Source: Alphaproteobacteria bacterium
Lineage (GTDB): Bacteria > Pseudomonadota > Alphaproteobacteria > Sphingomonadales > Sphingomonadaceae
Reading direction: 5' to 3'
DNA: 44,238 nucleotides
NCBI GenBank assembly: GCA_018823905.1
Contig: JAHJHL010000197.1
Span: forward strand, 1 to 44,238
Numbering within the stretch: the stretch's first letter is position 1; each line of letters opens with the position of its first letter. Under the pieces are notes generated by a model. The model was not told where the DNA came from. It did not search any database and worked only from the letters and a program-made list of their open reading frames with translations. Of the stretch, positions 33,602 through 37,400 are shown in pieces. A program made the translations under genes and the position numbers.

Positions 33602-34375
33602 TTGGCCCTGAGCCCGACCAACGATGCCGCGCTGTTGCAGGAAGTCGACGAAGCCGTCCGCAAGGACCGGCTCGACACGATCATGCAGCGCTATGGCCGC
33701 TGGATCATCGGCGGTGTGCTGGCCGCATTGCTGGCGTTCGGCAGTTATTTATACTGGAATCATCGTCAGGATGTCGCGCGCGGCGAGCAGGCTGAAGAGT
33801 TGATCGCTTCGTTCGAGAAGCTGTCGACGAATCAGCCGCGCGCCGCTGCCACCGAACTCGAGAAAATCGCTGCCGAGGGCGGTCCCGCTTATCGCGCGGT
33901 CGCGGTGATGCAGCAGGCGAACATCAAGGCGCAGGCGGGCGACCTGAAAGCTGCCGCCGCGCTGATGGCGAAAGTCGCCGCCGACGCCGAGCTCAACCAG
34001 GCGCTGCGCGATCTGGCGCTGATCCGCCAGACCGCGTTCGAATATGACAGCCTGAAACCCGAAGCGGTGATCGCGCGCATGAAGCCGCTGGTCGATGCCA
34101 AGGATCCGGTGTCGAGCTGGTTTGCCAGCGCCGCCGAACTGTCGGCCACCGCCCATTATCAGCTCGGCCAATATGACCAGGCGGGCGCGCTATATGGCCG
34201 CATCGCCAAGCTGCCCGGCGTCACCAAGTCGCTGCAATCGCGCTCGGTGCAGATGGCGGGCATGCTCGGCGTCGATGCCGTCACCGATCGCGCGGCCGAA
34301 AGCGCCGCGAAGGACCAGAAAGGCAATGCCGCGCCGCAAGCAGTGGCAGCCGCCCCAGTTGAGGAAGCCAATTAA
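33602..34375 (+). CDS. YfgM-like inner-membrane protein with TPR-type domain
   Basis: 257 residues. One transmembrane helix (about 33-52, RWIIGGVLAALLAFGSYLYW) anchors a periplasmic helical-repeat domain (about 60-225) resembling YfgM, an ancillary SecYEG translocon factor cooperating with periplasmic chaperones. The tail is Ala/Lys-rich and low in complexity. The start is an unusual TTG, chosen because GGAGG (33592-33596) is 5 bases upstream and the first conserved residues follow at once. It precedes bamB by 1 base, the same order as yfgM-bamB-der in E. coli. Confidence 0.88.
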   Translation: MALSPTNDAALLQEVDEAVRKDRLDTIMQRYGRWIIGGVLAALLAFGSYLYWNHRQDVARGEQAEELIASFEKLSTNQPRAAATELEKIAAEGGPAYRAVAVMQQANIKAQAGDLKAAAALMAKVAADAELNQALRDLALIRQTAFEYDSLKPEAVIARMKPLVDAKDPVSSWFASAAELSATAHYQLGQYDQAGALYGRIAKLPGVTKSLQSRSVQMAGMLGVDAVTDRAAESAAKDQKGNAAPQAVAAAPVEEAN

Positions 34376-34376
34376 T

Positions 34377-35711
34377 ATGCGGAAGACGCGTTTAGGAATG
34401 ACCGCAGCGCTGCTCGCGCTGTCGCTTGCAGGCTGCGGCGTGTTCAAAGGCGACGGCGGCCCGAAGACGCCGACGATCGGCGATCGCGTGTCGATCCTGT
34501 CGAACGATGCCAGCATCAAGGTCGATCCGGCCACCGCGGCCATCGCCGTCGTCCTGCCCGAACCTGCGGTCAACGCTGCGTGGGCGCAGTCGGGCGGCAA
34601 CGCCGCAAAATCAATGGGCCACCCGGCGCTGGGCGCAACGCGCAGCATGCTGTGGCAGGGCAATATCGCCGGTAGCACCAATAAGCAGCGCCTCGCCGCG
34701 TCGCCGGTGATTGCCGACAATCGCCTGTTCGCCGTCGGCACCGATGCCGTCGTGACCGCGCTCGCCGCCGACACGGGCGCGCCGCTGTGGCGCACCGCAA
34801 TCGGCAGCACTGGTAAGGATTTCAAGGATTCGCTGTTCGGCGGCGGCGCCGGGATCGACGGGTCGGTCGTTTATGCGACCAGCGGTGCGGGCGATGTCGC
34901 GGCGCTGAACGTCGCCGACGGATCGGTAATCTGGAAGGTCAAGCCCGCGGGTCCGCTGCGCGGCGCCCCGACGATTGCCTTTGGCGGTGTTTATGTGATC
35001 ACCCAGGACAACCAGATCATTGCTCTCAACGCCGCCAACGGCGGGGTTTTGTGGCAAGCGACGGCGTCGCTCGAAGCGGGCAGCGTGTTCGGCGCGGCAT
35101 CGCCAGCGGCGGGGCAGGGGACGATTGTCGCCGGTTTTTCGTCGGGCGAGGTTCAGGCTTATCGCTATGAAAACGGCCGCGACCTGTGGGAAGACGCGCT
35201 GGCGCGCACCTCGATGGCGCTGTCGGTATCGACGCTCACCGATGTCGATGCCGATCCGGTCGTCGACAATGGCCGCGTCTTTGCGCTGGGCCAGGGTGGC
35301 CGCATGGCGAGCTATGAACTGCTGACCGGCCAGCGCACGTGGGAAATCTCGATCGCCGGAATTTCGACGCCCTATGTGGTTGGCGAGTGGGTCTATGCGA
35401 TGACCGACGACGGCAAATTGCTGTGCGTCGCGCGCACGTCGGGCAAGGTGCGCTGGCTCCAGCAGCTTTCGCGTTTCCGCATCGAAACTGAAAAGAAGAA
35501 AAAGGATCCGATCCGCTGGAGCGGCCCGATTCTGGCGGGTGGCCGCCTGATCGCCGTCAACAGCGAGGGGATCATGGCAGAATATTCGCCGACCGACGGC
35601 TCGCTGCTTGGCTCGACTGAATTCAAATCGTCGCTGTCGCAGACGCCGGTGGTGGCGAACAATATTTTGTATGTTTTGGCAGACGACGGGCAGATCACGG
35701 CCTGGCGCTGA
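34377..35711 (+). CDS. bamB: Outer-membrane protein assembly factor BamB
   Basis: Lipoprotein of the BAM complex that helps insert outer-membrane barrels. 444 residues. Signal peptide ends in SLAGC with Cys20 as the lipidated residue. The rest is an eight-bladed propeller of PQQ-type blades; repeated segments are visible such as VTALAADTGAPLWRT, VAALNVADGSVIWKV, IIALNAANGGVLWQA, MASYELLTGQRTWEI and LLCVARTSGKVRWLQ. The ATG at 34377 is the start; the frame extending upstream overlaps yfgM. Longer than E. coli BamB (392), mainly through the N-terminal region. A CGGGCC-GGCCCG hairpin at 35720-35736 follows the stop. Confidence 0.94.
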   Translation: MRKTRLGMTAALLALSLAGCGVFKGDGGPKTPTIGDRVSILSNDASIKVDPATAAIAVVLPEPAVNAAWAQSGGNAAKSMGHPALGATRSMLWQGNIAGSTNKQRLAASPVIADNRLFAVGTDAVVTALAADTGAPLWRTAIGSTGKDFKDSLFGGGAGIDGSVVYATSGAGDVAALNVADGSVIWKVKPAGPLRGAPTIAFGGVYVITQDNQIIALNAANGGVLWQATASLEAGSVFGAASPAAGQGTIVAGFSSGEVQAYRYENGRDLWEDALARTSMALSVSTLTDVDADPVVDNGRVFALGQGGRMASYELLTGQRTWEISIAGISTPYVVGEWVYAMTDDGKLLCVARTSGKVRWLQQLSRFRIETEKKKKDPIRWSGPILAGGRLIAVNSEGIMAEYSPTDGSLLGSTEFKSSLSQTPVVANNILYVLADDGQITAWR

Positions 35712-35752
35712 CACGCGTCCGGGCCAGGGCGGCCCGGCGCAACTACAGGGAT

Positions 35753-36022
35753 TTAGGGCCAGACCCTGCTCATAACGCCGCCGAGGTTTGAGGCGATTTT
35801 GTTCAGGGCTAGGAGGCGAGGCGCTGGCATATTGGAATATTCCAAGCCGCGTTGACGCAGCCGTGGACAAAATCGGTCAAATCCCCCAGGGACAGCGAAA
35901 TGGCTTCGATCTCAAACATAAATGTCCTCGGACATAGCAACACTATGCCTGTCGGACATTTATGTCTGATATCTTCGCCATTTCGCTGCCTCGGCGGCGT
36001 TATGAGCAGGGTCTGGCCCTAA
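35753..36022. repeat. 270-bp nested palindromic element with perfect 34-bp inverted ends
   Basis: 35753-35786 and 35989-36022 are perfect 34-bp inverted repeats (outer ends TTAGGGCCAGACCCTGCTCA / inverted). Between them are two further dyads: hairpin A 35795-35874, with GATTTTGTTC pairing to GGACAAAATC and the palindrome TTGGAATATTCCAA (35832-35845) inside; and hairpin B 35893-35988, with arms of about 45 bases around a CAACA loop (CAGCGAAATGGC...GCCATTTCGCTG). As RNA or single-stranded DNA it should fold as a three-way junction. No open reading frame of note and no transposase are inside, and no clear target duplication flanks it. Best described as a non-autonomous repeat or structured regulatory element. 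Confidence 0.85.
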
Positions 36023-36023
36023 C

Positions 36024-37400
36024 ATGTCGCGATTCGCGACGATCGCCATTGTTGGCCGCCCGAATGTGGGCAAATCGACGCTGTTCAACCGGCTGGTCGG
36101 CAAGCGGCTGGCGCTGGTCGACGACCAGCCCGGGGTGACGCGCGACCGCCGCGAAGGCGACGCCAATCTGCTCGGGCTGGAGTTCCGGATCGTCGATACC
36201 GCGGGTTTCGAGGATCAGGATGCCGCGACCCTGCCCGGACGGATGCGCGTCCAGACCGAAAAGGCGGTGCGCGAGGCCGATGCGGCGCTGTTCATGATCG
36301 ATGGCCGCGCCGGGGTTGTCCCGCTCGACGAGGAAATCGCGCGCTGGCTGCGCAGCGAGGACACGCCGATCATCCTCGTGGTGAACAAGGCCGAGGGCAA
36401 GCAGGGCGAAAACGGTCTGATGGAATCCTATTCGCTCGGCTTCGACAATCCGGTCGCGCTCAGCGCCGAGCATGGCGACGGGATGGTCGACCTGTTCGAC
36501 CTGTTGCGCCCGATCGTCGAGCCGTTCGACGAGATCGAAAAGGAAGTTGCCTCGGCGTCCGACGACGAGGACGCCCCGCTCGGCCCGATGAAGCTGGCGA
36601 TTGTCGGGCGTCCGAACGCGGGCAAATCGACGCTGATCAACCGGATGATCGGCGAAGACCGGCTGATCACCGGACCCGAAGCCGGTATTACCCGCGATTC
36701 GATCCGCGTCGACTGGCAATGGGAAGACGACGGCGAGGTTCACGAGATCCAGCTGTTCGACACCGCCGGGATGCGCAAGCGCGCCAAGGTGCAGGACAAG
36801 CTGGAGAAAATGTCGGTCGCTGACGCGCTGCACGCGGTCGATTTTGCCGAGGTTGTCGTGCTGCTGCTCGACGCGACCAAGGGGCTGGAATCGCAGGATT
36901 TGCATATTGCCGACCGGGTTTTGCAGGAAGGCCGCGCGCTGGTCGTTGCGCTCAACAAATGGGACGTCGCCGAAGAGCCGTCGTCGCTGTTCAACGGTGT
37001 CCGCGCCGCGCTCGAAGACGGGCTGAGCCAGGTCAAGGGCGTGCCGGTGCTCACCATCTCGGGCGCGACGGGCAAGGGGATCGACACGCTGGTCCGCGTC
37101 GCGTTCGAACAGCGCGCGATCTGGACCAACCGCGTCTCGACATCGGCGCTCAATCGCTGGTTCGAACGCGCGGTCGATGCGAATCCGCCGCCAGCTCCCG
37201 GTGGCAAGCGCATCAAGCTGCGCTATATCACGCAGGCACGCACGCGGCCGCCGACTTTCGTCGTGTTCGGGACGCGGACGGACTCGTTACCCGGCAGCTA
37301 TGAGCGCTATCTGGTCAACGGCATGCGCAAGGAACTGGGGTTTCAGGGCGTGCCGGTGCGGCTCAATTTCCGCAATTCGCGCAATCCCTATGACGAATGA
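36024..37400 (+). CDS. der: Ribosome biogenesis GTPase Der (EngA)
   Basis: Double-Era-like GTPase needed for 50S maturation. 458 residues: G domain 1 with GRPNVGKST near residue 9 and NKAEG, a linker, G domain 2 with GRPNAGKST near residue 195, DTAGMRKRA and NKWDV, and a C-terminal KH-like domain (IKLRYITQARTRPPTFVVFG). The start ATG lies one base after the right arm of the 270-bp palindrome, so GAGCAGGG in that arm would have to serve as ribosome-binding site; no alternative upstream site exists outside the element. The ATGA end overlaps tusA-like. Confidence 0.97.
   Translation: MSRFATIAIVGRPNVGKSTLFNRLVGKRLALVDDQPGVTRDRREGDANLLGLEFRIVDTAGFEDQDAATLPGRMRVQTEKAVREADAALFMIDGRAGVVPLDEEIARWLRSEDTPIILVVNKAEGKQGENGLMESYSLGFDNPVALSAEHGDGMVDLFDLLRPIVEPFDEIEKEVASASDDEDAPLGPMKLAIVGRPNAGKSTLINRMIGEDRLITGPEAGITRDSIRVDWQWEDDGEVHEIQLFDTAGMRKRAKVQDKLEKMSVADALHAVDFAEVVVLLLDATKGLESQDLHIADRVLQEGRALVVALNKWDVAEEPSSLFNGVRAALEDGLSQVKGVPVLTISGATGKGIDTLVRVAFEQRAIWTNRVSTSALNRWFERAVDANPPPAPGGKRIKLRYITQARTRPPTFVVFGTRTDSLPGSYERYLVNGMRKELGFQGVPVRLNFRNSRNPYDE

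What the first reader, a model, noticed from the sequence alone, without database searches (positions are those of the whole stretch)
35753..36022. Nested three-way-junction palindrome between bamB and der
Two perfect 34-bp inverted ends enclose two separate dyads (35795-35874 and 35893-35988), giving 270 bp in which almost every base can pair. Unlike the other intergenic repeats here, which are simple or paired hairpins, it has long TIR-like ends and no ORF. It could be a MITE-type non-autonomous mobile element, a structured RNA, or a recombination/replication site. I do not recognise it as a described family.
Basis: partly seen in the sequence, partly recalled or inferred. Interest (0 to 1): 0.75.

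Follow-up and report, generated by a model that had tools for sequence, protein, structure and literature searches.

The report
Mobile hairpin carrying a translation relay
A 266-bp hairpin-shaped jumping DNA, found across sphingomonad bacteria, sits right in front of the essential gene der; the way its relatives are turned next to genes suggests that it carries a tiny reading frame that hands ribosomes on to the gene whose start it would otherwise cut off.

Summary
The palindrome is real (34-bp perfect arms, two inner dyads, fold z = -16.5). It is one copy of a non-autonomous element of nearly fixed length: 187 of 223 distinct complete copies are exactly 266 bp. It occurs in 65 of 80 genomes of the genus and 33 of 96 genera of a family sample. 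It duplicates TA (one site tested), and some ends match IS5-family (IS427-like) insertion sequences at 18-19 of 20 bases. I call it a MITE of that group; RAYT/REPIN and Rfam RNA are not supported.

The surprise is orientation. At 186 independent loci a host start codon lies 0-30 nt beyond the right arm 65 times, beyond the left arm 4 times; past 30 nt it is 59 to 56. The + strand carries a Shine-Dalgarno-led, about 38-codon ORF ending at the right arm; the - strand mostly lacks one. Where a start codon abuts the arm, the ORF stop lies -4 to +8 nt from it in 29 of 32 copies that have the ORF start (36 in all); other + frames: 2 and 0 of 36. Window: TAA-C-ATG(der).

I infer translational coupling that repairs the junction broken by insertion. 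The peptide shows no codon signature; expression is untested.

The parts
35755..36020 (+). 266-bp element (264 bp plus one base of each TA)
   Evidence: boundaries by comparison with other copies and with empty bamB-der junctions
35754..35755 (.). TA at the left end (presumed target duplication)
   Evidence: TA duplication seen directly at another copy, L100, against four empty sites; here inferred
36020..36021 (.). TA at the right end (presumed target duplication)
   Evidence: as for the left end
35755..35786 (+). left arm of helix P1 (terminal inverted repeat)
   Evidence: 32/32 complementary to the right arm
35989..36020 (+). right arm of helix P1
35787..35878 (+). helix P2 region, the best conserved part between copies
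   Evidence: matches to query 30-161; column entropies
35882..35892 (+). small helix P2b; its 3' side holds the AGGGA Shine-Dalgarno-like sequence (35888-35892) of the mini-ORF
35893..35988 (+). helix P3
35900..36022 (+). mini-ORF, 40 codons plus TAA, start MASIS; stop one base before der
35747..35751 (+). AGGGA, presumed original Shine-Dalgarno of der, now on the far side of the element
   Evidence: kept in 7 of 7 aligned empty junctions, directly before ATG there
36024..37400 (+). der (ribosome biogenesis GTPase Der)
   Evidence: TIGR03594, 535 bits, cut-off 306.7
34095..35711 (+). bamB-like gene upstream (start codon uncertain)
   Evidence: TIGR03300 is the best family, 206.6 bits, under its cut-off of 285.2

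Best explanation
It is a non-autonomous transposable element (MITE) moved in trans by IS5-family, IS427-like transposases into TA sites, often in stop codons or just before start codons. Shown: family, size, covarying arms, empty sites, shared ends, orientation effect near start codons, position of the mini-ORF. Inferred: between a gene's Shine-Dalgarno (or the upstream stop) and its start codon the insertion breaks translation initiation. In one orientation its own Shine-Dalgarno-led ORF of about 38 codons loads ribosomes; they open the right half of the hairpin, stop within a few nt of the host start codon, and translation restarts there (termination-reinitiation). Insertions the other way round lack the relay and are lost. 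The arms stay complementary through a DNA-level process such as template-switch correction of quasi-palindromes (mechanism recalled, not tested).
For: Family and size. TA duplication at L100 against four empty sites. IS5-family insertion sequences with ends 18-19/20 identical to some copies; of three protein fragments tested one passes the IS5 model NF033580 and two fall just under its cut-off. Start codon 0-30 nt from right versus left arm 65:4, beyond 30 nt 59:56, 186 loci; 12:2 in the 67 loci outside the first set; 10:2, p = 0.039, in other genera. Shine-Dalgarno-led start in the frame of the terminal stop: + 119 and - 13 of 129 Sphingopyxis loci. Mini-ORF stop -4 to +8 nt from the abutting host start in 29 of 32, other + frames 2 and 0 of 36. 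In 17 of 31 abutting copies the upstream gene also ends within 10 nt of the left arm. The modA-modB empty sites are TGATG overlaps in 19 of 19. Starts are genuine for mutM and thrB (profile position 1).
Against: No codon-position signature in the ORF (0.70, 0.73, 0.76 bits). Two antisense frames are nearly as open (94 and 91 against 98 of 104). The ORF is no more often intact near starts than elsewhere (44/54 against 66/74, p = 0.30). The bias also holds at 5-30 nt (29:3), where 73% of 22 loci keep a Shine-Dalgarno-like sequence of their own; a cruder ATG count shows the bias clearly only at 0-4 nt (29:3; 11:6 at 5-30 nt). Some abutting copies lack the ORF start (4 of 36) or end it early (L042). 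In other genera the strand contrast is weaker (35 against 24 of 57; ATG only 33 against 2). No expression data.
Confidence: 0.55

Rival explanations
1. Plain MITE. Mobility as above, but the orientation effect has another cause, for example something on the - strand that harms a gene close by (antisense promoter, termination), and the mini-ORF is incidental.
For: No peptide-level selection; the bias reaches 30 nt.
Against: The bias vanishes beyond 30 nt (59:56), which a promoter or terminator would hardly do; the stop of the mini-ORF lies at the host start far more often than stops of the other + frames.
Confidence: 0.3
2. Looped-out initiation. The folded element brings the old Shine-Dalgarno on its left next to the start codon on its right, so the ribosome initiates across the base of the hairpin.
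For: Shine-Dalgarno-like sequence directly left of copies that abut a start (42% of 31 against 27% of 95 other copies and 18% of background); der keeps AGGGA there.
Against: Both strands fold about equally well, so no orientation bias is expected, yet 36:1 is seen at 0-4 nt; P1 near starts shows no G.U excess (22 G.U, 34 A.C) and is no better paired than elsewhere (95.5% and 95.1%).
Confidence: 0.1
3. Regulatory RNA. The element was kept as a 5'-leader RNA that regulates the downstream genes.
For: Conserved P2 core across genera and helix covariation; in P2 one-sided changes between same-site copies favour G.U (16, against 5 A.C).
Against: Nothing in Rfam at gathering score (the two sub-threshold hits are microRNA models); in P3 the wobble test points the other way (10 G.U, 38 A.C) and in P1 neither way (18, 14); downstream genes are unrelated in function.
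Confidence: 0.05

Closest known systems
MITEs / insertion sequences of the IS5 family, IS427 group
   Same: TA duplication; ends like TAGGCCGTAAACTCATAAAC and TAGGGTC...ACTCA shared with DUF4096-carrying insertion sequences of the genus; 2-bp duplications and about 830-865 bp length are listed for most IS427-group elements of Paracoccus (table passage of PMC3281130)
   Different: No transposase; 32-bp arms that are almost perfectly complementary and vary in concert; nearly fixed 266 bp across genera; strand-specific mini-ORF; orientation effect at start codons. The transposase that moves it was not identified.
Integron attI1 ORF-11 and short ORFs in attC sites
   Same: Short ORF with its own Shine-Dalgarno on a mobile-DNA junction, feeding a gene that lacks one by translational coupling, and relief of hairpin barriers (passages of PMC8876359)
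   Different: Integron sites are recombined by an integrase and ORF-11 has 11 codons; this is a TA-inserting MITE with about 38 codons running through a hairpin. Coupling is shown by experiment there and only inferred here.
Rickettsia palindromic elements (RPE)
   Same: Palindromic mobile element with an ORF (passage of PMC10969869)
   Different: RPEs often lie in frame inside genes; this one is found at gene junctions. One copy, L070, does run in frame into the host gene.
REPIN / REP elements with RAYT transposase
   Same: Palindromic, intergenic, dispersed (recalled)
   Different: Y1_Tnp found in 15 of 80 genomes and not in S. alaskensis, which has at least 15 complete-looking copies; far longer than a REP.

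Membership tests
MITE (non-autonomous DNA transposon) | terminal inverted repeats | tested here: met
   25-32 of 32 bases complementary in 238 fetched copies, 15 of them repeats of one place (copies under 22 of 32 were dropped beforehand)
MITE (non-autonomous DNA transposon) | several dispersed copies and empty sites | tested here: met
   empty junctions
MITE (non-autonomous DNA transposon) | target duplication | tested here: met
   TA at L100 against four empty sites; only this site is clear-cut
MITE (non-autonomous DNA transposon) | no transposase gene, moved by a related autonomous element | tested here: inconclusive
   266 bp hold no transposase; related ends on IS5-family elements, but movement not shown and no longer element with the same 17-nt ends in S. 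alaskensis
IS5 family, IS427 group (as source of the transposase) | ends shared with the insertion sequence | tested here: met
   best matches 18-19 of 20 for one IS type, 15-16 for another; random TAGG 20-mers of the window mostly 11-13
IS5 family, IS427 group (as source of the transposase) | transposase of the IS5 family | tested here: met
   NF033580 over cut-off for one fragment (141.2 bits) and just under it for two (108.5, 106.8; cut-off 110); group name IS427 rests on TA duplication, size and recall
REPIN / RAYT | Y1 transposase in genomes with copies | tested here: not met
   15 of 80 genomes; none in G001 (S. alaskensis), which has many copies
Rfam RNA families | score over the gathering threshold | tested here: not met
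   0 matches in the whole window
translational-coupling leader ORF (like attI1 ORF-11) | Shine-Dalgarno-led short ORF ending at the next start codon | tested here: met
   29 of 32 copies abutting a start; 4 further abutting copies lack the ORF start
translational-coupling leader ORF (like attI1 ORF-11) | loss of ORF translation lowers expression of the next gene | not testable with these tools
   needs reporters

The most novel reading that the evidence does not exclude
A transposable element that repairs the translation junction it breaks: it carries a portable stop-to-start relay, so that it can settle between the Shine-Dalgarno or upstream stop and the start codon of even essential genes, in one orientation only.
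Probability: 0.5. Interest if true: 0.75.

Novelty: new variant of a known kind. Interest (0 to 1): 0.62.

Why it matters
If the relay is real, it shows how a compact genome can tolerate mobile DNA at the most sensitive point of a gene, and it puts short coupling ORFs like those of integrons into a widespread MITE. It gives a testable case in which translation, rather than transcription, decides which insertions survive. It also bears on how the start regions of conserved genes (der, mutM, thrB, modB and others) should be read in Sphingopyxis. The arms, which differ between copies yet stay complementary within each copy without a wobble bias, may be a natural record of DNA-level palindrome correction.

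Tried and rejected
RAYT/REPIN: Y1_Tnp in 15 of 80 genomes, none in S. alaskensis. Rfam: nothing at gathering score; two sub-threshold microRNA hits taken as chance. An autonomous copy with the same 17-nt ends: none among the places listed for S. alaskensis, and the element profile found no match in 50 IS loci, some of them one place fetched twice. Looped-out initiation was my first idea; both strands fold alike and the wobble test is flat. Coding selection on the mini-ORF: tested, not seen. Promoter as cause of the orientation effect: set aside because the bias ends at about 30 nt; no promoter scan was run. IS630 as source: considered because of the TA, not searched with its own model.

Papers: nine searches (listings). 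Seen beyond the listing: passages of PMC3281130, PMC8876359 and PMC10969869, and abstract and outline of PMC10666635.

Rows dropped: 7 of 195 loci before the first orientation count (3 incomplete, 4 without a profile hit). One representative per flank cluster was counted (153, later 186 loci); the last member instead of the first gives 65:4 and 56:55.

Full report
Observation. Sequence, inverted-repeat search and folding confirm the nested palindrome: 34-bp perfect arms, two inner dyads, z-scores of -16.5 (+) and -17.4 (-). It lies between a bamB-like gene and der. Der is firm (TIGR03594, 535 bits); BamB is the best family for the upstream gene but under its cut-off.

A family of nearly fixed length. 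The window's own genome (95.6% complete) shows this one copy. In the genus 65 of 80 genomes match. The genus is Sphingopyxis by inference: the contig of the nearest copy, in G038, has the length of a contig named Sphingopyxis sp. 2PD, and G001 fits S. alaskensis RB2256 by its 28,543-bp plasmid and the place of the match. The plasmid record, as distributed in this collection, shows no feature at the element. In a 397-genome sample of the family two queries hit 48 and 57 genomes, in 25 and 33 of 96 genera; only two candidates a genome were scored, so copies are undercounted. Of 195 loci in the main analysis 188 gave a complete element; 50 more were all complete. Of these 238, 15 repeat a place already held; 187 of the 223 distinct copies are exactly 266 bp.

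Arms. In 136 independent 266-bp copies helix P1 is 95.6% Watson-Crick with 3.38 pair types per pair, against 69.7% after shuffling, and its middle columns carry up to 1.7 bits of variation on both sides. In 25 pairs of copies that my flank grouping put at one site, P1 shows 55 compensatory, 46 one-sided and 4 other double changes. The grouping is imperfect: L097/L211, only 62% identical, is probably not one site and gives 17 of the 55. P1 mismatches are G.U 65, A.C 64, other 64. An RNA kept by selection should favour G.U on one strand, so I read P1 as kept complementary at the DNA level. In one-sided changes P2 leans to G.U (16:5) and P3 to A.C (10:38); I cannot explain that.

Mobility. A joined-flank search gave, by my count of the listed rows, one match across the bamB-der junction in 59 of 80 genomes; G000 and G038 hold the element there and the remaining 19 gave split or partial matches that I did not resolve. 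Seven of seven aligned empties keep AGGGA shortly before the ATG, so in the window the element stands between that sequence and the start codon. At copy L100 of S. alaskensis four relatives have one TA where the filled site has two. DUF4096 transposases occur in 57 of 80 genomes. Of 50 loci around them, some fetched twice, 43 gave TA-bounded inverted ends. One type (TAGGCCGTAAACTCATAAAC) equals element ends at 18-19 of 20, mostly of copies from other genera; the type present in S. alaskensis (TAGGGTC) at 15-16. So the source of the S. alaskensis copies is less certain.

Orientation. A codon-usage gene caller trained on 32 window ORFs was applied alike to both sides. At 153 independent loci a start codon lies 0-30 nt from the right arm in 56 and from the left arm in 3 (p = 1.2e-13), against 27:21 at 31-80 nt and 25:29 beyond. 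The first 86 loci gave 44:1 and the other 67 gave 12:2, p = 0.013. With the later loci it is 65:4 and 59:56 over 186; Sphingopyxis alone 55:2, other genera 10:2, p = 0.039. Fourteen further loci from S. alaskensis and two relatives have no start within 30 nt on either side; this weakly favours survival over targeting. A cruder ATG count gave 29:3 at 0-4 nt but 11:6 at 5-30 nt, so the effect is firm at 0-4 nt and depends on gene calling further out.

The mini-ORF. In the first 110 copies AGGGA precedes the start in 100 and ATGG stands at the same place in 106; the frame ends at TGA seven bases before the element end in 71, or at a stop on its last base in 19. In the window it reads TAA-C-ATG(der). 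A Shine-Dalgarno-led start in the frame of the terminal stop exists on + in 119 and on - in 13 of 129 Sphingopyxis loci; in other genera on 35 and 24 of 57, or 33 and 2 for ATG alone. For copies abutting a start codon (36 loci, 32 with the ORF start) the gap from mini-ORF stop to host start is -4 to +8 nt in 29; the other + frames give 2 and 0 of 36. In 17 of 31 abutting copies the upstream gene also ends within 10 nt of the left arm. At modA-modB all 19 aligned empties read TGATG, the overlap of a coupled pair. MutM and ThrB match their profiles from position 1, so those starts are genuine.

Reading. Coupling by termination-reinitiation needs overlaps or very short distances (abstract of PMC10666635), and attI1 ORF-11 serves cassettes without a Shine-Dalgarno in this way (passages of PMC8876359). 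The element fits that pattern. Against it stand: no codon-position signature, frame openness close to that of two antisense frames, no excess of intact ORFs near starts, and a bias at 5-30 nt where many genes keep their own Shine-Dalgarno. Selection for being translated, without selection on the peptide, would look like this; so would an incidental ORF. I put the MITE assignment at about 0.9 and the relay at about 0.55.

Noticed in passing
helices P2 and P3 of the element, same-site pairs of copies: One-sided changes favour G.U in P2 (16 against 5 A.C) and A.C in P3 (10 G.U against 38 A.C), as if the two halves were constrained on opposite strands.
   Followed up: no
left ends of 47 of 153 independent loci: The upstream co-directional gene, as called, stays open to the end of the flank, so that a TAG or TAA at the left end of the element may serve as its stop codon.
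   Followed up: partly
modA-modB junction in G008, G009, G017, G018, G024, G071, G078: The match is interrupted at the same junction by roughly 100-200 bp that one search does not list as this element; another repeat may sit there.
   Followed up: no
L070, L227: The mini-ORF runs in frame or unstopped past the element end toward the next gene, a possible fusion.
   Followed up: no
L233, L234, L277, L278: IS5-family insertion sequences of 1062-1072 bp instead of the usual 844-855; the extra stretch has no match to the element profile.
   Followed up: partly
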